A stretch of DNA of 22,034 bases from a virus. The stretch is taken from the IMG/VR virus record IMGVR_UViG_3300009152_000236, positions 1 through 22,034 of that record; one strand, 5' to 3'. This document shows, one piece after another, positions 11,831 through 21,401 of this stretch. The position numbers were made by a program, and so were the translations under genes. Within the stretch, counting starts at the first letter, position 1; each line of letters starts with the position of its first letter. Under the pieces are notes generated by a model, which was not told where the DNA came from, searched no databases, and saw only the letters and a list, made by a program, of their open reading frames with translations.

Positions 11831-13405
11831 TTATATTGATCCACCAATTCTTCTTTCAGGTATCCTGCTTGCTGGAGAATTGTTTGGTGAGTTCCAATCA
11901 TTCTGCTGCTTTGTCAATCTTAAAAGTTCCCGTTGAGTATTAAGCATTTCTCTCTGTATATAACCCTGATTTGTGTTTGTTACTATATTTATCAATTGAG
12001 AGAATATTTGATTAGACAAACTAGATTTTTGTTTGTCCATTGGATCTGGAGTTTTATTATTTATATCCTTAATATCGCTAGCCATACCGTCCAAGCCGTA
12101 TGCTAGCCCGATAATAGTGGATATTGCAGCGGTTATAATTCCCAGAGGTCCAAAGCTAAGTCTAGATGCAAAAGCAAAAGACCTAACATCAATGCCAAAT
12201 TTAGTGGCAGCTACATTAAATAATCTAGTTGACATTTGGTATGTGAATTGTAGTGCAGACCAAATTCTAGTTATAGAAAGATAAGTAGCAGCTACTCCTG
12301 CAAACAATGCCAAGGCTTGGGATAATTGCTTCACCACAGGCCAATTTATAACTGCCATTAAAGCTTGACCCAGTAAATTCATTGGAGTTGCAAATATATT
12401 GGCTAGCTGAGAGAAGCCCATCATTGAATTGCTTAAGTCATTTATAGGGTTCTTCGCATCTTCTAGAGCTTTTGCTAATTGAGGGAATATCAAAGCTGAT
12501 TGCCCGCCATAGGGCTGTAACAACTTCTCAAATATTCTAGAAGACATTACATCAGTTCCAAGACCACCTTGTAACCCCTGAACAGATTGAGCAGCAATCT
12601 TAACCATCTGCTCCACAATTGCTTTTTGTTTCGCTGGGTCAGTCTCCGCTGCAAGTCTTTCCTGATATCCATCTGCTATATTTAAAAGCTGTAATTGAGC
12701 ATAAGAAGCCTTGCTAAAAAATTGAGCAGCTTGATTGATAAGCTCTGTCCCTCTGCCACCCAACGTAGCTCCAAGGGCACCAAATCCCCCAGCTATTCCA
12801 GCACCCGCGCCTAACTGAGATTGAATTTGTAAGTTTTTCGAAAGGTCAGCAGTCAGCCTTAGTATTTCATCTTGTCTTGTGCCATATGTTCTTGAGAAAT
12901 TAGCTAGGTTAACAGCCAAATTTTGAGCTTCCCTTTGGTTTAACATCAAGTAGGAAGTGTTGGCACCTAAAAATTTTATTAAAGATTCTGTGCTTTGACC
13001 AGTAACCTTCATCCTAGCTAAAAGTCCCAGGGTTGATCTGTCTAACTTCTCAACGCCCTTTTCTCTTAGAGCTATGACTTGTGCCGTCATCTCATTAATG
13101 TCTGCTCCTAAACTTACGCTGGCGGCTACTTGATCAACTGATATTGTTTGTATTAAGCTTTTTTCTGTTGCGAATGATCTATTTTGTAGATCAGACATCT
13201 TCTTCATTACGCTGCTAAGTCCCTTTATAGCTTCTAACCCGTTCTTTATAATTGGGACTTTAGTAAACTTTTCAAATTCTTTGCTAAATCTTTCTTGCTG
13301 CCTTAAGTATCTGTTTATCGGTTGCCGATTGAAAAAGGTGTTCATCGACTCAAACTGGCTAGTCAGCAGCCCAAGTTCAGTTGCTAGTTGTGAAAAGTTA
13401 GTCAT
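11831..13405 (-). CDS. Tail tape measure protein (gp29-like)
   Basis: The 524-residue product is mostly helical, with glycine/alanine-rich hydrophobic stretches near 195-215 (GAGAGIAGGFGALGATLGG) and two membrane-like segments near 365-390 and 408-438. This is the usual layout of a tape measure protein: a rod that spans the tail tube, sets its length and enters the host membrane. The N-terminal 150 residues form long polar helices. The C-terminus is polar and ends in an Arg/Gly-rich tail. T4 gp29 is 590 residues; at the known ratio of roughly 0.15 nm per residue, a tail near 80 nm is inferred. The start overlaps the preceding gene stop as ATGA. Position upstream of tube-initiator and hub genes supports the call. 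Confidence 0.8.
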   Translation of the reverse strand: MTNFSQLATELGLLTSQFESMNTFFNRQPINRYLRQQERFSKEFEKFTKVPIIKNGLEAIKGLSSVMKKMSDLQNRSFATEKSLIQTISVDQVAASVSLGADINEMTAQVIALREKGVEKLDRSTLGLLARMKVTGQSTESLIKFLGANTSYLMLNQREAQNLAVNLANFSRTYGTRQDEILRLTADLSKNLQIQSQLGAGAGIAGGFGALGATLGGRGTELINQAAQFFSKASYAQLQLLNIADGYQERLAAETDPAKQKAIVEQMVKIAAQSVQGLQGGLGTDVMSSRIFEKLLQPYGGQSALIFPQLAKALEDAKNPINDLSNSMMGFSQLANIFATPMNLLGQALMAVINWPVVKQLSQALALFAGVAATYLSITRIWSALQFTYQMSTRLFNVAATKFGIDVRSFAFASRLSFGPLGIITAAISTIIGLAYGLDGMASDIKDINNKTPDPMDKQKSSLSNQIFSQLINIVTNTNQGYIQREMLNTQRELLRLTKQQNDWNSPNNSPASRIPERRIGGSI

Positions 13406-13946: not shown

Positions 13947-14252
13947 GTGTTTATGAGTAATATAGATGAAGATATAGTAGATTTTTTAGATTTAATTAAT
14001 TTCACTCTAAGTGATGAGTTTTTGAATAAGTGGAGATACAGATTTAGTGTAAAGTTTTTAAAGGAATTTCAAACAAAAGTTATTAAGTCTCTTAAAGATC
14101 GAAAGCCACTTAAGCTAGAATCTCTGTATAAACACTTGTCAAAGAAGTGTGGTTACTCACCAGAACAAGTTAAGAACTTCTTTGAAGCGATAGATATTAA
14201 TATTTATCATCCGCTAGTTTTAGGCAAGGTTTCTTCTTTAGCCTTGAGTTGA
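13947..14252 (+). CDS. Unknown small helical protein
   Basis: I do not recognise this protein of 101 residues from GTG 13947, or 99 from ATG 13953. GTG is 8 bases past AGGA (13935-13938), while the ATG is 14 bases away, so spacing favours GTG, though an ATG start cannot be excluded. The sequence is charged and helical: DEDIVDFLDLINF, FLKEFQTKVIKSLKDRK, then SPEQVKNFFEAIDINIYHPL. It has no cysteines pairing for zinc and no membrane segment. It stands alone on the plus strand behind its own promoter candidate, and its last 46 bases overlap the 3' end of the convergent nuclease gene. A small regulatory or replication accessory protein would fit, but this is only inference from position. Confidence 0.6.
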   Translation: MFMSNIDEDIVDFLDLINFTLSDEFLNKWRYRFSVKFLKEFQTKVIKSLKDRKPLKLESLYKHLSKKCGYSPEQVKNFFEAIDINIYHPLVLGKVSSLALS

Positions 14253-15007
14253 GCCGTCTGCTCCTCGATCCTCTGCTGAATTGAGCACTGGTCGTTAAAC
14301 AGCGGGCACATTGGCTTATACTCACACCAGTCACAGAACTGGTTCTGCATAGCTGGGAATTCGTCCTTCTTCTTCTTACGGATCTTCCAGACCTTGGAGA
14401 TTTCCTTCTCTCTCCAGGAGTTAACTGCCCCTTGCGTGAACTTAACTGATACTAAACTATCGGTTAAAGGGTAGTAGTGAGCGCAGTAGATCTCACTCAG
14501 TGGAATTTTAAACTCTTGGCTGACGGCAAAAGCGTAGCCCATAAGCTGCTTATCCCTGCCAAGCTCGACTCTGGACTTTTCCTTCTTGGAAGTCTTGTAG
14601 TCAATAATTAGCATGCCCCCGTTGAGTCCTCGCACGATACGGTCTATAAACCCGTTGTATTTAATACCTTCCGCGAGATTCACGGAAAATTCGTGTTCGA
14701 CAGCTACGGTTTCCCCCAGCCCCTTGTTAAACTTTAAAAAGTTATCGAGGCATTGGTGGATGCGTTCTTTGTATACAAATGGAACCTTGTAGTCTTTTTT
14801 AATGTTTTCTGCAATTTTCTCTAGTTGCGAGATATGATTCTCGGTGTAGCCTAACTCAAAGATACGGTGAATATATGTTCCGAAGTCCAAAGCGTCCTCG
14901 TTTTTTGATGGAAACCCTGGGAGCTTCCTGATATATCTATACTCATACTTGAGTAGACACTGATCTATAATATCGGATTTTGAATTACTTAGTCGGTCGA
15001 TAAACAT
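14207..15007 (-). CDS. PD-(D/E)XK nuclease with Fe-S cysteines (RecB/Cas4-like)
   Basis: The 266-residue product shows the RecB-family nuclease core: His47 in GTYIHRIFE, Asp122 in GFIDRI, Asp136 and Lys138 in IIDYKTSK, and Gln154/Tyr158 in KQLMGYAF. Cys17 near the N-terminus with Cys225, Cys228 and Cys234 near the C-terminus (FCDWCEYKPMC) reproduce the C...CxxC...C arrangement that holds a 4Fe-4S cluster in Cas4 and AddB nucleases. Such proteins are DNA exonucleases or end-processing enzymes. It is head-to-head with the primase, with start codons overlapping at CATG. The ribosome site GAGGT is well spaced. Codon use is more G+C-rich than in the tail operon. A role in phage recombination or host DNA degradation is inferred; no other CRISPR genes are present. 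Confidence 0.85.
   Translation of the reverse strand: MFIDRLSNSKSDIIDQCLLKYEYRYIRKLPGFPSKNEDALDFGTYIHRIFELGYTENHISQLEKIAENIKKDYKVPFVYKERIHQCLDNFLKFNKGLGETVAVEHEFSVNLAEGIKYNGFIDRIVRGLNGGMLIIDYKTSKKEKSRVELGRDKQLMGYAFAVSQEFKIPLSEIYCAHYYPLTDSLVSVKFTQGAVNSWREKEISKVWKIRKKKKDEFPAMQNQFCDWCEYKPMCPLFNDQCSIQQRIEEQTAQLKAKEETLPKTSG
14966..14971 (+). promoter_or_regulatory. Candidate -10 element for the primase, inside the nuclease gene
   Basis: A perfect TATAAT lies 34 bases upstream of the primase ATG, inside the antisense coding sequence of the nuclease. No recognisable -35 hexamer sits at 16-18 bp. It is listed because there is no intergenic DNA for a promoter. Confidence 0.25.
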
Positions 15008-15980
15008 GATTACCTCAAATTACATTAGAGCCTACCTGCTGGAAAAGTTCAACGGTAAATACAGAATATTAAGTGGCGGACGCGAGATGGTCATCCCTTC
15101 AATATTTATGGATCGTGACCCCAAGCGGCACATGTCTATTAATTTAGACACCGGACTTTGGCAGTGCTTTAAGTCCCAGAAGAAAGGTAACTTCATCCAG
15201 TTATACTCAGAGTTGGAGCACCTGACGTATAAACAAGCCTACTCTAAGTTTTTAATAGACGAGTTCTTTGCCGAGGAAAAAGAAGAGCCAAAGCAAGAGC
15301 CAGTTAAAGTTTTAATTGAAGACGAGTTTAAGAACTTCTCTAAGGTTGACGCATTCAGCTTTGATGTGGAGCTTAACTCTTTGGCAGCGATGACCCTGGT
15401 TCGAAGAGGCGTCCTCAATCAGGGACCATTCTACTACGCGCATACGGGCCCCTACATGGGCCGATTGGTCATCCCCTACCTGCATGAGGGTCGCACCATT
15501 TTCTTCCAAGCACGGGCCTTATACGCCGACCAGGAGCCAAAGTATTTGAACTTCCGTGGAGTGAAGGCATCCGCAATCCTGTATCCATTCAATTATGAAT
15601 CAGAAGAGCCCCTCTATATTTGTGAAGGCGTATTCGATGCAATGTCCATTAAGGCTCTTGGCTACAATGCAACCACCACGATATCCTGCCATGTATCTAA
15701 GGAGCAGATTGGACAACTCAAGTTTTACAAGGGACCAATCGTAGTGGCTTACGACAGTGACGCGGCTGGGCTAAAGGGCTTGCGTAACTTTGAGATCTTT
15801 AGACGCAGAAACCGCATGCCAAAGATTCACTACACTCTGCCACCCAAGAGGTTCAAGGATTGGAATGAGGCTTACTGCCAAGATGTTGATGCTGTCCATT
15901 ATGCCTGTAAAAATTATCAAGTATTTAATCTCAACGAATGGGATACTATGACAGCGTTAGATACATCGGGTCTGATATAA
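15006..15980 (+). CDS. DNA primase, gp61/DnaG-like (Toprim)
   Basis: The 324-residue product contains a Toprim core. Glu207 is in YICEGVFDAMS, and Asp250/Asp252 are in VVAYDSDAAG, the metal-binding residues for primer synthesis. RLVIPY near 153 and FFQARAL near 166, followed by PKYLN, match the RNA-polymerase domain seen in T4 gp61 and DnaG. KRFKDWNEAY near 281 matches the conserved K-D-x-N-E motif. The N-terminal 70 residues align in layout with the primase zinc ribbon (RHMSINLDTGLWQCF, KKGNFIQLYSEL), but the metal ligands are missing except Cys54. T4 gp61 is 342 residues. It should lay primers for lagging-strand synthesis with a replicative helicase encoded elsewhere. Its ATG has no strong ribosome site. 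The 3' end overlaps the convergent structural gene by 35 bp. Confidence 0.87.
   Translation: MITSNYIRAYLLEKFNGKYRILSGGREMVIPSIFMDRDPKRHMSINLDTGLWQCFKSQKKGNFIQLYSELEHLTYKQAYSKFLIDEFFAEEKEEPKQEPVKVLIEDEFKNFSKVDAFSFDVELNSLAAMTLVRRGVLNQGPFYYAHTGPYMGRLVIPYLHEGRTIFFQARALYADQEPKYLNFRGVKASAILYPFNYESEEPLYICEGVFDAMSIKALGYNATTTISCHVSKEQIGQLKFYKGPIVVAYDSDAAGLKGLRNFEIFRRRNRMPKIHYTLPPKRFKDWNEAYCQDVDAVHYACKNYQVFNLNEWDTMTALDTSGLI
15024..15052 (-). promoter_or_regulatory. Candidate promoter for the nuclease, inside the primase gene
   Basis: On the minus strand TTGAAC (15052-15047) and TCTAAT (15029-15024) are 17 bp apart. Transcription would begin near 15017, leaving a leader of about 10 bases that holds the GAGGT ribosome site (15016-15012). 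Both hexamers are imperfect. Confidence 0.3.
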
Positions 15981-16899
15981 GTGTTTCTCCAAACACGCTA
16001 TACTTAGCCCGAATAGCATACACACCTTGAATTGAGCCGAAGTTGCCTGCGGCTAATTGAGCGTGGGTTTTCAGTTGAGTGGTGTCCCAGGGCAATACCA
16101 TAACATTGTCTGACGTTACAGTGATTAGAGATGATGTGTCAGAGAATGACGATACTGTCACCCTTGAGGGTAGATTGGCAGCTTCGTTAATTTTTTGAAT
16201 TTCTACCGCGCCACTGGTGATGACGTTTTCTCTCAGTAGGTTCTTTATTGAATCATCAATATCTCTATTTTCTACGTGAACATCCGTGGCTATCTTCAAA
16301 TCAATTTTTGAATCTAATGTTACTTTGCTGTTTACCAATCTGCTCTTTAGTTTAAGCATCAAGGGTTGAGTTATTACTGTAAACCCTCCCTTGCGAAGGC
16401 TGAATTCATTTACAACAGTCTGGGGTAGCGAGCCAGCAACCCATTTAATAGTCCAAACGTCAATGTAATCCCCAGTCGCTGAAGCATTATTGGATATTAC
16501 TTTGCTTCCTCCATCCAGGTTAATGACCCCGACAGAGTTTACAGTCCCATCTAAAACTACCACATACTTGCCAACACCAGTTCTAAATATGCCACTTGTG
16601 GTGTTCACAGTGCCAGCATAGTTTGAAACATTGAAAGAACTATTTGATGTTAATGTTGATGAATTGCAGAAATTCATCAACATAGATCCACTAACATTGG
16701 CTGTATCAATAAGCTGAGTATCCGAATCCAATACGGAGCTTGGATATAAATTAGAATTTCTAGAAAATACAGTTACAGCACTGATCTCGTAAGGGTCCAT
16801 AAATTGACCATCCGAGATAAAAAATGCCTGCAATCCGACCTTGGATAAGACCACAGGTCTGTTGTGCCTGTCACTAATATTTATGTTGTTCAACTGCAT
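15946..16899 (-). CDS. Beta-rich virion structural protein, family unknown
   Basis: I do not recognise a named family for this 317-residue protein. It is rich in Ser, Thr, Val and Asn with short alternating strands throughout, no signal peptide and few cysteines, as expected of a virion component. Visible segments include SDGQFMDPYEISAVTVFS near 29-46, TGDYIDVWTIKWV near 140, and a mid-protein VHVENRDIDDSIKNLLREN helix. It is the last gene of the short minus-strand unit that begins with the gp26-like protein. Its ATG lies 26 bp inside the preceding frame and has AAGG 9 bases upstream, so it is probably translated with it. A baseplate or tail-tip component is inferred from this company. The 3' end overlaps the primase gene. 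Confidence 0.68.
   Translation of the reverse strand: MQLNNINISDRHNRPVVLSKVGLQAFFISDGQFMDPYEISAVTVFSRNSNLYPSSVLDSDTQLIDTANVSGSMLMNFCNSSTLTSNSSFNVSNYAGTVNTTSGIFRTGVGKYVVVLDGTVNSVGVINLDGGSKVISNNASATGDYIDVWTIKWVAGSLPQTVVNEFSLRKGGFTVITQPLMLKLKSRLVNSKVTLDSKIDLKIATDVHVENRDIDDSIKNLLRENVITSGAVEIQKINEAANLPSRVTVSSFSDTSSLITVTSDNVMVLPWDTTQLKTHAQLAAGNFGSIQGVYAIRAKYSVFGETLISDPMYLTLS
15981..15996 (+). terminator. Hairpin directly after the primase stop, weak terminator candidate
   Basis: GTGTTT-CTCC-AAACAC is a perfect 6-bp stem with a 4-base loop, starting at the base after the primase stop. No T-run follows, so factor-independent termination is doubtful. It lies within the antisense coding sequence of the structural gene. 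Confidence 0.25.
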
Positions 16900-17062
16900 C
16901 TTTCTGAGCCTTCAAATCGTCGGAATATAACTTTAAAAAGACCGCCCTTTCCAGTTTGGTCATTTGTTTAACGTCTTGATAAGTAAAACTACATTTACTT
17001 ACCAATATGTAGGCTTCAAGCAGTAATGATTCTAAATTTAATTCAGATATCAGGTCACTGAA
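16874..17062 (-). CDS. -1 frameshift extension of the gp26-like protein (tail-assembly-chaperone-like)
   Basis: This is a 62-codon open stretch in the -1 frame, entered from the slippery T-run. It has no credible start: the frame opens only with TTG at 17119, deep inside the upstream gene, and its first ATG comes 33 codons downstream of the slip site. The sequence reads FSDLISELNLES, then EAYILVSKCSFTYQDVKQMT and KLERAVFLKLYSDDL with a charged helical tail. The pattern of a sequence ending in T-K-x-E-R-x-x-x-L followed by a charged helix resembles the small second proteins found after baseplate-hub/chaperone genes in many phages. Translated by a -1 shift it would give a 306-residue fusion. 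A T9 sequencing miscount at the homopolymer would instead make it one continuous gene. Confidence 0.65.
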   Translation of the reverse strand, partial: FSDLISELNLESLLLEAYILVSKCSFTYQDVKQMTKLERAVFLKLYSDDLKAQKDAVEQHKY

Positions 17063-17793
17063 AAAAAATTTTCGTTTATTGGGACCTCCACCTTGCTTTC
17101 CCTGGAGCAGAATCCACAATCAAACAAAAATTTTGGATTTAAACCTAAATCCGTTCGCATTATTTGGGATATTATATATTTAACATCCATAATGTGCATC
17201 TTAGGGATTGCTTTGGAAACAAACACTGGGTCAGTTATCCCATTTAATTCAGTAACAAATCTCCAGAGATTAGTGTAGGTCTGGTCGGACGATGAGATGT
17301 AATCCTCGTCTGATACTCTAGGGAATCTAACCTTTGCGGTCTTATTTAGTTTTGGTAAGGTTATTTCTCTTGGGTCTACTACATCATGGGGAATATAATT
17401 AACTAAAAGATTACTTAAATTAATTTTAATTTCACTTTTAGATTGACAGTGAGGGCATATGACCTCCGCAGGATATTCTGCCCCGTAAGATATCTCCCTT
17501 ATTTTTAATAGTAAAAATAACTTGTCTATTAGCAATAACGAGTTGACATCAGCCCCTTTAACACATTTAGTTAAAATTAAATTAATGGGGTTTAAATTAT
17601 TTTTAGCACTAGAAGCCAGTTGCTTTTCATCTTCAAATTTAATTGAAGTGATGGTTACCTCAGGGGCCTTATTATTATAAAATCTTCCCTCTGATGGTAA
17701 TCTAACAATGACATCCGTTTCCGCAGGTATTTCCCCAAATAGCTGCTCTAATCTTGAATCTCTTTGATCTGCAAACTTATCTAAATTTGACAT
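17050..17793 (-). CDS. gp26-like baseplate hub assembly protein (T4 baseplate family) with zinc ribbon
   Basis: The 247-residue product has features of the T4 gp26-type baseplate family: RLPSEGRFYNN near 31-41, then FEDEKQL near 53, then LLLKIREISYGAEYPAEV near 94-111. Four cysteines, Cys113/Cys116 (CPHC) and Cys226/Cys229 (CGFC), are arranged to form a zinc ribbon that brackets the central domain. In T4, gp26 is required for hub assembly. It starts a short minus-strand unit, divergent from uvsW across 30 bp. The ribosome site AGGA is 7 bases from the ATG. The zero frame ends NENFFSVT at a run of eight T, just past a canonical -1 slippery heptamer, so this is probably the short form of a two-product gene. 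Confidence 0.78.
   Translation of the reverse strand: MSNLDKFADQRDSRLEQLFGEIPAETDVIVRLPSEGRFYNNKAPEVTITSIKFEDEKQLASSAKNNLNPINLILTKCVKGADVNSLLLIDKLFLLLKIREISYGAEYPAEVICPHCQSKSEIKINLSNLLVNYIPHDVVDPREITLPKLNKTAKVRFPRVSDEDYISSSDQTYTNLWRFVTELNGITDPVFVSKAIPKMHIMDVKYIISQIMRTDLGLNPKFLFDCGFCSRESKVEVPINENFFSVT
17061..17068 (-). promoter_or_regulatory. Candidate -1 programmed ribosomal frameshift site (T8)
   Basis: In zero frame the minus strand reads AAT TTT TTT TCA GTG ACC TGA. The heptamer T TTT TTT (17068-17062) fits the X XXY YYZ rule with perfect re-pairing of both Phe tRNAs after a -1 slip. The zero-frame stop lies three codons beyond the slip, and the -1 frame is open for 62 codons. A weak stem (CTGAAT/ATTTAG, loop of three) follows about 14 bases downstream. 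Confidence 0.6.
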
Positions 17794-17823: not shown

Positions 17824-19197
17824 ATGAAAATTAGATCAGGCATTATAGACTCGATAATAGAAACAGATAACTCAAATATTATAAAAGTTTTATCTGATAA
17901 GTGGGCGTTCCATGTGAATGGCTACCAATACACGCCCACCTACAAGAGGGGGCACTGGGACGGGAAGAAGCGGTTCGTATCGGCTGCTGGAAAGTTCAAG
18001 ACGGGGATGCTGGCAAACATCCTACGGGACTTAAATCAAGTCGGATGCACCCCAGAAGTCATTAGAGAGCATGGAGATGGTCCTAAGCTAATTTTCAAAC
18101 GCAATATCAAGGAGTTCAAGCTCCATGATTATCAGCAAGAAGCTATCAGCAACGCACTGGTCGCTGAGAGAGCCATAATCAAGTCACCTACGGGATCAGG
18201 TAAAACTTTAATTATGGCAGCAACCCTAACTGCTTTCCCAAAGGCTAAGATTACAATCCTGTTTGATGAGAGAAGCATTCTAACTCAGACATATGAATAC
18301 CTCACGCGCAAGTGCGGATTCAAGGATGTTGGAATAAACTTAGGTGGAGACTTCAAAGATGGGCGTATCATGCTCTCAACTGTGCAGAGTATTGATAAGA
18401 TCCTAGACAGTCATCTAAACCAATCAGAAGTGTTGATGGTAGACGAAGTTCACAAGTTCTGCCGGGGGGAGATGACCGTTGCAGCCATCCAGAGCTTCCC
18501 CAATGCCCGCTACCGCTTCGGATTCACAGCCACCATGCCAGATGACCGGATCGGGGAATTGACGCTTGTAGGGGCCTTTGGTGACGTCATAGAGACTAAA
18601 TCAACTCAGGAGCTAATCGCTGAGGACAAGCTGGCGAAGCCCATAATACAGATGTTGGAGTATGAGGATGAGATATCAGAGCAGGATTTGGACAGCGATT
18701 ACGCTACTATCTACGAGAAGTTTATTATCACCTCCGAAAAGAGAAACGGAATCATTTTCAGTTTGGCTGCAAAGATTGCTGAAGCCAATCCAGAAGCTAA
18801 AGTTTGTATTCTCGTCAAGAATCTTGAGCATCTTCAGACGCTGAGGAATGCCATACCTAATTCATTCACGCTAGAAGGCATCAATACCATTCACGAACGT
18901 AAGCAGGCGATTAAAGATTTCCTTGAATGTGATAGTGCAGCCTTCCTAATCGGAACTAAAGTATTGCAGACTGGCATTAACATTGAAGAGATCACCCACC
19001 TAGTTAACGCTAGAGGTTTGAAAGATAAGATCCCAACTTTACAGGGTCTAGGCAGAGGAATGAGAAAATCTGTTGGAAAAACCTCTGTGATGGTATATGA
19101 TTTCTTTGATCACATCCCTTACTTGAGGGAGCATTCAAAAGCCAGAATTAGACACTATGAGGACGAGGGACATGAAGTCTCTCGGATAAAACTATGA
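17824..19197 (+). CDS. uvsW: UvsW-type SF2 DNA/RNA helicase
   Basis: The 457-residue product has all superfamily 2 motifs: Walker A SPTGSGKT (121-128), DEVH box (207-210), motif III-like FTAT (234-237), and motif VI QGLGRGMR (407-414) after LQTGINIEEI. The N-terminal 90 residues match the T4 UvsW extra domain in layout, with FHVNGYQYTPTYKRGHWDGK near 29-48. T4 UvsW (503 residues) unwinds R-loops and branched recombination intermediates, switching origin-type to recombination-dependent replication. The same job is inferred here, with the nearby primase and nuclease. The ATG abuts the predicted transcription start, so the mRNA may be leaderless. It overlaps the next gene by ATGA. G+C is higher than in the tail genes. 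Confidence 0.9.
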   Translation: MKIRSGIIDSIIETDNSNIIKVLSDKWAFHVNGYQYTPTYKRGHWDGKKRFVSAAGKFKTGMLANILRDLNQVGCTPEVIREHGDGPKLIFKRNIKEFKLHDYQQEAISNALVAERAIIKSPTGSGKTLIMAATLTAFPKAKITILFDERSILTQTYEYLTRKCGFKDVGINLGGDFKDGRIMLSTVQSIDKILDSHLNQSEVLMVDEVHKFCRGEMTVAAIQSFPNARYRFGFTATMPDDRIGELTLVGAFGDVIETKSTQELIAEDKLAKPIIQMLEYEDEISEQDLDSDYATIYEKFIITSEKRNGIIFSLAAKIAEANPEAKVCILVKNLEHLQTLRNAIPNSFTLEGINTIHERKQAIKDFLECDSAAFLIGTKVLQTGINIEEITHLVNARGLKDKIPTLQGLGRGMRKSVGKTSVMVYDFFDHIPYLREHSKARIRHYEDEGHEVSRIKL

Positions 19198-19415
19198 AGA
19201 GAGCCGAAGACGTATTAGACAGCCTTTACAACTTTACTGAATCACAGAAGATGAAGCTTGAAGCATTAGCTGCACAGATTAACAGTATTAAGGATACCAA
19301 GATTAGCAAGGATACTTATGATACGCTAACTAACGTATTTCAAGAAGTCCACATGCTTCGGGATAATGTTACGATTAGGTTGTTGGCTAGTATGAAACGT
19401 GGGGATATGCTCTAG
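19194..19415 (+). CDS. Small helical protein downstream of uvsW (UvsW.1-like position)
   Basis: The 73-residue product is charged and all-helical with heptad-like spacing: LDSLYNFTESQKMKLEALAA, then VFQEVHMLRDNVTIRLLASM. It has no cysteine and no membrane segment. Its ATG overlaps the uvsW stop (ATGA), so it is translated with the helicase. In T4 a similarly small protein, UvsW.1, follows uvsW and the recombination mediator UvsY (137 residues) is near; position suggests an accessory of the helicase, but I cannot show homology. Its TAG stop and the stop of the convergent glycine-rich gene share the palindrome CTAG, a 4-bp overlap. Confidence 0.7.
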   Translation: MKRAEDVLDSLYNFTESQKMKLEALAAQINSIKDTKISKDTYDTLTNVFQEVHMLRDNVTIRLLASMKRGDML

Positions 19416-20383
19416 AACTCGCATGTAATAATTATTACGCCTGCGCCTCCGCTTCCCCCAGCACCAGAACCTATTGCGGTAGTGCCAGAACCTCCCCCAC
19501 CTCCCCCACTACCAAAGCCTCCGTCAGCCCCAGCCCCTGCCGAACCAGCGGTAGCTGCTCCCCCACCGGACCCCCCTGAGGATACTAAAGGAAGAAAATT
19601 ACTTATACTTTCATAGTTATTTATAAAATTATTACCGTAATTTATCCCGTTAGTTCCTGGCAATCCAGCAGCCCCGCCAGCTATGCTCCCCCATACAGTT
19701 TGCCACATTCCCCCAGTGTTCACAGTTCCGCCCGCGAATGCTGTTGTTGTGCTTTTCCCACCTCCTGCTGCACCCCCACATGCCATACAGTGGGAAGCTG
19801 CTCCAGTGGCTATAGCAGTTGAATTTCCCCCTGCTGCTCCTGTTGATCCTGCTGCACCACCTCCCCCTGCGTAGGATGCACATATACCTAAAAAAGATAT
19901 TGGACTTGTCGCCCCAGTAGATGCAGCACCACCACCTCCAGCGGCACCCGCAGCGGTTCCTAGAGAGCCCCCGTTTGCAAGAACCACTCTATTGCTTGCA
20001 GTGTATGCACTGTCTGGATAGAATAATACATAACTAGCCGCACCGTTAGTCCCGTTACCATTTCCTGTGCCGCCAGGACCGCCATTCCCAGGTTGAACAT
20101 ATAATATATCTGGGAGTAATGCGGCTGGGATACTTGCTACAGTCAAAGCTCCTGCCCCTCCCCCCCCCCCCCCTATTCTATTAGCAGTGTTATCCCCCGC
20201 AGTGTTTTTACCGACTCTACGGCCACCACCGAGAGCTAAAATAAATATATTTTTAACTCCTTTAGGTTTTTGCCAAGTATAAAATGCAGTTGCGATTGTT
20301 GCTGCCCCAGGAAATCCAGTATAAATTCTAGTTGTTCTATCGGCCCCAAAGCAGCAGATTCCTTGATAATTTTGTAATACCAT
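19412..20383 (-). CDS. Glycine-rich tail-fibre-type protein with G14 tract
   Basis: The 323-residue product starts with about 35 residues of ordinary sequence, then TWQKPKGVKNIFILALGGG, the entry to a glycine-rich domain found in phage fibres and adhesins (W-x-K-P-x-G-V-K-x-I). The remainder has long Gly/Ala runs broken by LLPDILYVQPGNGGPGG and ends GGSGGAGVIIITCEF. Polyglycine sandwich folds of this kind present receptor-binding loops, as in T-even gp38 adhesins; that function is inferred. It is a paralogue of the next upstream gene (20385-21401) and follows it by one base. The coding strand has 14 consecutive G at 20173-20160, in glycine codons. It has no strong ribosome site. Confidence 0.75.
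   Translation of the reverse strand: MVLQNYQGICCFGADRTTRIYTGFPGAATIATAFYTWQKPKGVKNIFILALGGGRRVGKNTAGDNTANRIGGGGGGAGALTVASIPAALLPDILYVQPGNGGPGGTGNGNGTNGAASYVLFYPDSAYTASNRVVLANGGSLGTAAGAAGGGGAASTGATSPISFLGICASYAGGGGAAGSTGAAGGNSTAIATGAASHCMACGGAAGGGKSTTTAFAGGTVNTGGMWQTVWGSIAGGAAGLPGTNGINYGNNFINNYESISNFLPLVSSGGSGGGAATAGSAGAGADGGFGSGGGGGGSGTTAIGSGAGGSGGAGVIIITCEF
20160..20173. repeat. C14/G14 homopolymer inside a glycine-rich gene
   Basis: Fourteen uninterrupted C on the plus strand (G on the coding strand) lie about 70 codons into the 323-aa gene. They are read as four GGG codons and part of a GGA. A change of one or two bases would frameshift the protein. Neighbouring glycine stretches use mixed codons and are not homopolymers. 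Confidence 0.9.
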
Positions 20384-20384
20384 T

Positions 20385-21401
20385 TTAAAAGTTACTAATT
20401 ATAATGACAAATCCAGGGCCGCCTGCACCACCATTTCCACCAAATCCAGTTGTTCCTCCAGAGGCAGTCGATCTTGATCCTCCTCCCCCACCTCCGCACC
20501 CTAATCCTCCAGAACCACCATTTCCACCATTAAAAGTGCTTGTAGAGTTACCAGATCCACCTCCCCCACTACCACCAGTAAATAATAAAGGATATCTACT
20601 ATTTATTATATCAATATTATTAAATATATTAATTCCATAATTTATACCCTCTACTCCGTTGCTTCCATTAGCATTTGTTCCTAATGCTCCTGCTGTTACG
20701 GTAGGCCAAGTTCCACCTGTAGTTATGGCACCCCCGGTAAATCCAGCAGCAGCACCCGCTCCTCCTCCACCAGCCCCTCCGCAAGCAATATTATTGCTAG
20801 TGCTAGCAATTGCGGTTATTGTTGTTCCTGCTGCTCCGTTTCCACCTCCGCCACCAGCTATCCCCGCGACAGGAAGTGCAAACCCTAAGTAAGCTAGTGG
20901 GCTAGTGGAACCAGTGCTCACCGCGCCAAGAGTTCCACCTGTAATACTCCCGTTTGCTCCTGCACCTCCACCGTTAGCAAGACATACAATATCAACAGCA
21001 GTAGGCACAGTAGCTGACAATGCATTTATGGTTACATAACTTGCTCCTCCCGCTGTAGCAGCAGTTCCAGTGCTTCCATTTCCGTTACCCACGCCACCAG
21101 TTCCACCCTGTCCAGGTTTAACGTATAAAATATCTGGTAATAGAATTGCTGGTATTATTGTTCTAATCAAAGCTCCTCCGCCTCCGCCAGCACCTCCAAT
21201 AGTATTTGCATTTGCTGCCCAAGCACCACCACCTCCACCACCCCCACCCCCTTGAGTTAAAATTATAACTGATTTTACGCCTTTAGGCTTTTGCCAAACA
21301 TTATAATTCCATGAGGTTGTAGCACTAGTGGAAACTTCACCAACATATACTTGAGTAAGTTGATTAGCGTTTGCAATAGAAGCGTAATTTTGATATGCCA
21401 T
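20385..21401 (-). CDS. Glycine-rich tail-fibre-type protein (paralogue)
   Basis: The 338-residue product begins MAYQNYASIANANQLTQVYV and enters the glycine-rich domain at VWQKPKGVKSVIILTQGGGG, followed by alternating glycine runs and IIPAILLPDILYVKPGQGG. It ends GGAGGPGFVIIISNF. The order of segments is the same as in the downstream 323-aa gene, so the two arose by duplication. The variable parts are the loops between glycine runs, as expected of receptor-binding surfaces. The ATG overlaps the stop of the 151-aa gene as TAATG. Glycine codons here are mixed GGA/GGT/GGG with no long homopolymer. A virion adhesin is inferred; the host receptor is unknown. Confidence 0.75.
   Translation of the reverse strand: MAYQNYASIANANQLTQVYVGEVSTSATTSWNYNVWQKPKGVKSVIILTQGGGGGGGGGAWAANANTIGGAGGGGGALIRTIIPAILLPDILYVKPGQGGTGGVGNGNGSTGTAATAGGASYVTINALSATVPTAVDIVCLANGGGAGANGSITGGTLGAVSTGSTSPLAYLGFALPVAGIAGGGGGNGAAGTTITAIASTSNNIACGGAGGGGAGAAAGFTGGAITTGGTWPTVTAGALGTNANGSNGVEGINYGINIFNNIDIINSRYPLLFTGGSGGGGSGNSTSTFNGGNGGSGGLGCGGGGGGSRSTASGGTTGFGGNGGAGGPGFVIIISNF

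What the first reader, a model, noticed from the sequence alone, without database searches (positions are those of the whole stretch)
16874..17793. Probable -1 programmed frameshift fusing a gp26-like protein to a chaperone-like tail
The gp26-like gene carries T TTT TTT in the correct frame, the zero frame stops three codons later, and the -1 frame stays open for 62 codons with no usable start and no ribosome site. Frameshifted tail-assembly chaperone pairs (lambda G/GT, P2 E/E') are well known, but a zinc-ribbon T4-baseplate-family protein as the frameshifting partner would be unusual. The predicted products are 247 and 306 residues. The alternative is a homopolymer miscount (T9), which would simply make one 306-residue gene.
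Basis: partly seen in the sequence, partly recalled or inferred. Interest (0 to 1): 0.8.

Follow-up and report, generated by a model that had tools for sequence, protein, structure and literature searches.

The report
Frameshifted T4-type tail assembly chaperone
A phage gene for a tail-building helper protein carries a conserved slippery run of T's that very likely makes some ribosomes slip back one base and produce a longer second version; this is a well-known trick in phages, already reported for T4-like phages, and not a sequencing error.

Summary
A gp26-like gene (17793..17050, minus strand, 247 aa) carries GAA AAT TTT TTT TCA, stops three codons later, and the -1 frame stays open for 62 codons (306-aa fusion).

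A homopolymer miscount is ruled out. All 30 distinct sequences of its group (relatives 33-86% identical, separate metagenomes) keep an in-frame Phe-Phe TTT TTY at the same place, with a 56-64-codon extension in the -1 frame. The extension evolves as protein in that frame (median pN/pS 0.22), and some relatives have no start codon anywhere in it.

The gp26-like part is PF12322, the family of both T4 gp26 and T4 gp51. The extension matches the C-terminus of gp51. T4 gp26 ends where the frameshift occurs; gp51 is the same domain plus the extension. T4 and five other Straboviridae have two such genes. The window's wider group, giant phages, SP-15 and LIS04 have one gene with an out-of-frame extension.

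Best reading: the T4-type tail assembly chaperone, short form plus frameshifted long form, equivalent to lambda gpG/gpGT. Chaperones of T4-like phages and their poly-T slippery sites are already published (Vladimirov et al. 2022), so this is a new member of a known kind.

The parts
17050..17793 (-). Short chaperone form (TAC-N, gp26-like, 247 aa, zinc-ribbon cysteines C113/C116 and C226/C229)
   Evidence: PF12322 T4_baseplate E=2.6e-14; phrog_150 baseplate hub E=8.6e-16; all four cysteines invariant in the 14-sequence alignment
17061..17071 (-). Slippery site A AAT TTT TTT T (T8 run; T TTT TTT and A AAT TTT heptamers in zero frame)
   Evidence: Direct reading; TTT TTT or TTT TTC in frame in all 30 distinct group-A sequences
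17050..17052 (-). Zero-frame stop TGA, three codons after the slip
   Evidence: same distance in all group-A relatives except L023 (4 codons) and L035 (6 codons)
16874..17062 (-). -1 frame extension (TAC-C, 62 aa plus stop), gp51-C-terminus-like, read only after frameshift to give the 306-aa TAC-NC
   Evidence: phrog_634 'baseplate hub assembly catalyst' E=0.0027; profile match to T4 gp51-family C-terminus E=1.5e-6; pN/pS 0.22 in this frame; three-helix AF2 model, pLDDT 88.5
11831..13405 (-). Probable tape measure protein (524 aa), the presumed client of the chaperone
   Evidence: Inference from position in the tail cluster and from hydrophobic Gly/Ala-rich segments in the sequence; no informative family hit

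Best explanation
[quoted passage not shown] Most ribosomes stop at 17050 and make the short form (TAC-N, 247 aa). A minority slip back one base on the Phe-Phe codons TTT TTT, with tRNA-Phe re-pairing on T TTT TTT (A AAT TTT is also possible), and make the long form (TAC-NC, 306 aa, junction ...INEN-FFF-SDLISEL...). The extension is a small helical domain homologous to the C-terminus of T4 gp51. The two forms are expected to coat and deliver the tape measure protein during tail tube assembly, as lambda gpG and gpGT do. T4 gets the same pair from two paralogous genes, 26 (short) and 51 (long). Shown here: conservation, coding in the -1 frame, absence of a start codon, homology to gp26/gp51, one gene versus two genes per genome. 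Inferred: the slippage itself, its efficiency, and the function with the tape measure.
For: Conserved split and slippery site in 30/30 distinct sequences. Lowest synonymous variation at the slip codons and pN/pS 0.22 in the -1 frame. No start codon at all in the -1 frame of L043, L045 and L048, and none in phage PA5oct. T4 gp26 and gp51 both PF12322, with gp51 carrying the extra C-terminal part. Profile matches of the extension to the gp51 C-terminus and of the gp26-like part to the gp51 N-terminal part. One PF12322 gene in 16 genomes or contigs with out-of-frame extensions against two in six Straboviridae. In SP-15, LIS04 and immuto the gene lies between the tube-side gene and the tape measure gene, or a large ORF in that place. 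A shifted continuation also occurs in the other non-Straboviridae phages examined, though the shift is +1 in some and several giant phages also have an overlapping ATG.
Against: No protein or ribosome-profiling data. No convincing stimulatory RNA structure: only a weak 12-bp stem 55 nt downstream with one covarying pair. The upstream GGAGGT of the window is not conserved. In the window the gene is not directly next to the presumed tape measure gene. The fold comparison found no significant match to solved chaperones (HK97 gp13 and YqbN appear in the list, but at E>1).
Confidence: 0.92

Rival explanations
1. Homopolymer sequencing or assembly error: the true run is T9 and there is one 306-aa gene.
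For: A T8 run is a place where errors can occur.
Against: The same split is present in all 30 distinct sequences, including ones whose run is only six T's ended by C (AAT TTT TTC) where no miscount is expected; a near-identical second contig also has T8.
Confidence: 0.01
2. Transcriptional slippage: RNA polymerase adds a U at the T8 run, so a minority of mRNAs carry U9 and encode the fusion in the zero frame.
For: T8 in the window clade is near the run length at which slippage becomes noticeable (established knowledge, not tested).
Against: Relatives L035-L040, L042, L046, L047 and L049-L051 keep the same -1 extension with only T6 followed by C, too short for efficient polymerase slippage, while the tandem Phe codons in frame are always kept.
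Confidence: 0.05
3. The 62-codon frame is a separate small gene made by its own start or by termination-reinitiation.
For: In several giant phages the extension has an ATG overlapping the upstream stop (TAATG; L015, L052-L057), and 121Q is annotated that way.
Against: In the window there is no ATG or GTG near the stop; the TTG at -19 codons is not conserved, and L043, L045 and L048 have no start codon at all in that frame.
Confidence: 0.03
4. Pseudogene: an ancestral in-frame 306-aa gene broken by a deletion.
For: A single out-of-frame split.
Against: The split is fixed at one codon across the clade; the extension is under purifying selection; T4 gp26 ends at the matching place.
Confidence: 0.01

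Closest known systems
T4 gp26 and gp51 (PF12322; tail assembly chaperones of T4-like phages, Vladimirov, Gautam and Davidson 2022, Virology 566:9-15)
   Same: Same protein family; gp26 ends at the EFF motif where the frameshift lies; gp51 has the same domain plus the C-terminal extension.
   Different: T4 uses two separate genes without a frameshift; here one gene with a -1 slip makes both. The 2022 paper is not held in the library; its title and the statement in PMC12846349 show that T4-like chaperone genes and poly-T -1 sites are already described. From memory, its abstract says frameshifting is conserved in several T4-like groups.
Lambda gpG/gpGT and P2 E/E' (programmed -1 frameshift tail chaperones)
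   Same: Short and long forms by a -1 slip near the end of the upstream frame; extension without its own start; part of the tail gene cluster.
   Different: Sequence similarity was not tested; the short form here carries two zinc-ribbon-like cysteine pairs; in the window the gene is not directly upstream of the presumed tape measure gene.
Pakpunavirus/Vandenendeviridae chaperone locus (PMC12846349)
   Same: Invariant poly-T site (GTTTTT) and a -1 extension open in all 56 alleles, annotated in databases as a separate hypothetical gene.
   Different: Different phage family; homology of the proteins was not tested here.
Phage 0305phi8-36 two-gene tail chaperonin (PMC2147016)
   Same: Two-gene alternative to the frameshift, formally like T4 26/51.
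   Different: Proposed for other proteins, without a frameshift; homology not tested here.

Membership tests
T4-like tail assembly chaperone (PF12322, gp26/gp51) | PF12322 domain in the short form above the curated cut-off | tested here: met
   53.9 bits against cut-off 24.5, E=2.6e-14
T4-like tail assembly chaperone (PF12322, gp26/gp51) | C-terminal extension homologous to the gp51 C-terminus in the long form | tested here: met
   hhalign E=1.5e-6 to the gp51-family C-terminus; phrog_634 E=0.0027
T4-like tail assembly chaperone (PF12322, gp26/gp51) | Both a short and a long form are encoded, by two genes or by a shift | tested here: met
   One PF12322 locus with an out-of-frame extension in related contigs; two loci in six Straboviridae
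Programmed -1 frameshift tail chaperone (lambda G/GT kind) | Conserved slippery heptamer in zero frame just before the zero-frame stop | tested here: met
   T TTT TTT or T TTT TTC in 29 of 30 sequences; L044 has GGG TTT TTT
Programmed -1 frameshift tail chaperone (lambda G/GT kind) | -1 frame encodes a protein domain without its own start | tested here: met
   pN/pS 0.22; no start codon in L043, L045, L048
Programmed -1 frameshift tail chaperone (lambda G/GT kind) | Position between tube and tape measure genes | tested here: inconclusive
   True in SP-15 and LIS04, and likely in immuto; in the window a 317-aa gene, a primase/nuclease pair and a 156-aa gene lie between it and the presumed tape measure gene
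Programmed -1 frameshift tail chaperone (lambda G/GT kind) | Both proteins made at a fixed ratio and absent from the virion | not testable with these tools
   Needs expression data
Programmed -1 frameshift tail chaperone (lambda G/GT kind) | Shared fold with solved chaperones (HK97 gp13, YqbN) | tested here: inconclusive
   Both appear in the Foldseek list, but at E>1

The most novel reading that the evidence does not exclude
At the same Phe-Phe codons of one homologous chaperone gene, different phage lineages obtain the long form in different ways: -1 slip (window clade, XacN1, PA5oct, Vibrio 2.275), +1 (or -2) slip (SP-15, LIS04, Mel-JY01, immuto and a large uncultured group, mostly with TTT C, TTT T or CTT T sites), overlapping stop-start (giant phages), or a second gene (T4). 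The slip direction has therefore switched while the protein product was kept. Whether the 2022 paper already describes the switch could not be checked.
Probability: 0.6. Interest if true: 0.45.

Novelty: new member of a known kind. Interest (0 to 1): 0.33.

Why it matters
It corrects annotation: in many T4-related phages the gene called 'baseplate hub subunit' (gp26) and a missing or 'hypothetical' small gene after it are one recoded tail chaperone. It supports the reading of T4 gp26 and gp51, long called hub protein and hub assembly catalyst, as the short and long forms of that chaperone. It also offers one homologous site for comparing -1 slip, +1 slip, stop-start coupling and gene duplication as ways to set a protein ratio.

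Tried and rejected
Downstream stimulatory RNA: a stem 55 nt after the slip is predicted in most relatives, but it has one covarying pair, is interrupted in L025 and L033, lies too far downstream and sits in a conserved coding stretch; not claimed. Upstream Shine-Dalgarno-like stimulator (GGAGGT in the window): absent in many relatives. Solved structures: sequence search gave only unrelated weak hits; Foldseek of both parts had no match with E<=0.001. Reading the fusion with a four-letter codon code did not give the product. The 317-aa downstream gene also showed a shifted continuation in some relatives; its translation is not clearly conserved across relatives and lies antisense to the primase gene, so it is not taken as a second frameshift. 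The paper by Vladimirov et al. could not be opened.

Full report
The observation. On the minus strand, ORF 17793..17050 encodes 247 residues ending P-I-N-E-N-F-F-S-V-T. The DNA there is GAA AAT TTT TTT TCA GTG ACC TGA, with T8 at 17061..17068. The -1 frame is open from before the run to 16874, so a slip on T TTT TTT (or A AAT TTT) gives ...NENFFFSDLISEL..., 306 residues.

Not an error, not chance. Relatives were fetched from IMG/VR with the protein (11 loci) and with a profile (72 loci). In the window's own wider group (30 distinct sequences including the window, relatives 33-86% identical in protein) every gene has Phe-Phe TTT TTT or TTT TTC in the zero frame, a zero-frame stop 3 (rarely 4 or 6) codons later, and a 56-64-codon extension in the -1 frame. 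A second contig almost identical to the window also has T8. Several relatives have only six T's followed by C, so neither a homopolymer miscount nor polymerase slippage fits. The extension shows median pN/pS 0.22 in the -1 frame, against 0.85 and 2.46 in the other frames. The only fully conserved degenerate codons without synonymous change are E241, N242 and F243, at the start of the slippery site. There is no conserved start: most -1 frames are closed by a stop just upstream, and three relatives have no start codon at all in the extension frame. Among 203 other long ORFs in the same loci, 20 have a shifted continuation of 40 codons or more without ATG/GTG, against 30 of 45 of these genes under the same rule.

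What the two parts are. The 247-aa part is PF12322 (E=2.6e-14) and phrog_150, baseplate hub. The extension weakly matches phrog_634, 'baseplate hub assembly catalyst', the gp51 family (E=0.0027). T4 gp26 and T4 gp51 are both PF12322 (8.8e-64 and 3.9e-52). T4 gp26 ends ...KEFFELL, at the place of the slip, and gp51 continues for about 48 residues past the PF12322 match. A profile of 26 extensions aligns with the C-terminus of six gp51 proteins at E=1.5e-6; the gp26-like profile aligns with their N-terminal part at E=4.9e-5. So gp26 is the short form and gp51 the long form of one protein kind, and the window gene encodes both through a frameshift. Gene counts agree: eight IMG/VR contigs, SP-15, LIS04 and 121Q have one PF12322 locus each, as do five more phages with an out-of-frame extension, whereas T4 and five other Straboviridae have two (two further phages were below the detection limit). 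The IMG/VR contigs may be fragments.

Named relatives. In Bacillus phage SP-15 and Listeria phage LIS04 the gene lies between tail tube and tape measure genes, the classic chaperone position; in Flavobacterium phage immuto it follows a gene annotated as tail completion protein and precedes the tape measure gene. A shifted-frame extension after the FF motif is present in SP-15, LIS04, Streptococcus GXN1, Microcystis Mel-JY01 and immuto (+1 frame; immuto has Phe-Leu), in XacN1, 121Q, Vibrio 2.275, Atu_ph07 and PA5oct (-1 frame), and in giant uncultured phages. Alishewanella Slickus01 has a plausible but weaker +1 case. Where annotated, the extension is treated as a separate hypothetical gene or left out. 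Some giant phages have an ATG overlapping the stop (TAATG or similar), so coupling instead of slipping is possible there.

Mechanism. Tandem slippage of tRNA-Phe on T TTT TTT or T TTT TTC is standard for -1 frameshifting (established knowledge). No near downstream structure was found; a stem 55 nt downstream is weak evidence only. For the +1 lineages the sites TTT C, TTT T and CTT T would allow the P-site tRNA to re-pair one base forward (LIS04, with TTT A, fits this less well); a -2 slip on T6 cannot be excluded by sequence. The extension is predicted as three helices (pLDDT 88.5), the short form as a mixed alpha/beta fold (pLDDT 84.8). Foldseek listed HK97 gp13 and YqbN, both described as tail assembly chaperones (PMC9603447), but not significantly.

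Known or new. Frameshifted tail chaperones are classical. [quoted passage not shown] That paper is not held; its title appears in reference lists, and PMC12846349 cites it for poly-T -1 slippery sequences in TAC-N genes of T4-like phages. My memory of its abstract is that gp26/gp51 are named as the T4 pair and that several T4-like groups keep the frameshift. The window is therefore a new, well-supported member of a known kind from an uncultured group. The least documented aspect is the change of slip direction at one homologous codon pair; whether it is already described could not be checked.

Noticed in passing
L055, L058-L090; L014, L016, L017, L092, L094: The homologous chaperone gene carries its extension in the +1 (or -2) frame instead of -1, with conserved GAG TTT TTT CGN CCT TTC TTC TGA in a large uncultured group and TTT TTT TGG or TTT CTT TGG in others.
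   Followed up: partly
L015, L052-L057: In giant uncultured phages the gp51-like extension starts with an ATG overlapping the stop (TAATG), suggesting coupled re-initiation instead of slippage, although the frame is also open upstream to the FF motif.
   Followed up: partly
window 14207-15980: An exonuclease gene (Cas4/RecB-like, -) and a DNA primase gene (+) are inserted in the middle of the tail gene cluster, on opposite strands.
   Followed up: no
window 17824-19197: A UvsW-like helicase gene lies divergently next to the chaperone gene, recalling T4, where uvsW lies close to genes 25, 26 and 51.
   Followed up: no
window 19412-21401: Two adjacent, similar, glycine-rich tail fibre-tip-like proteins (323 and 338 aa) in tandem; the first matches phrog_863, tail fiber assembly. 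Possibly duplicated adhesins with polyglycine motifs.
   Followed up: no
window 15946-16899: The 317-aa gene downstream of the chaperone overlaps the end of its -1 extension by 26 bases, so extension and next gene may be translationally coupled.
   Followed up: no
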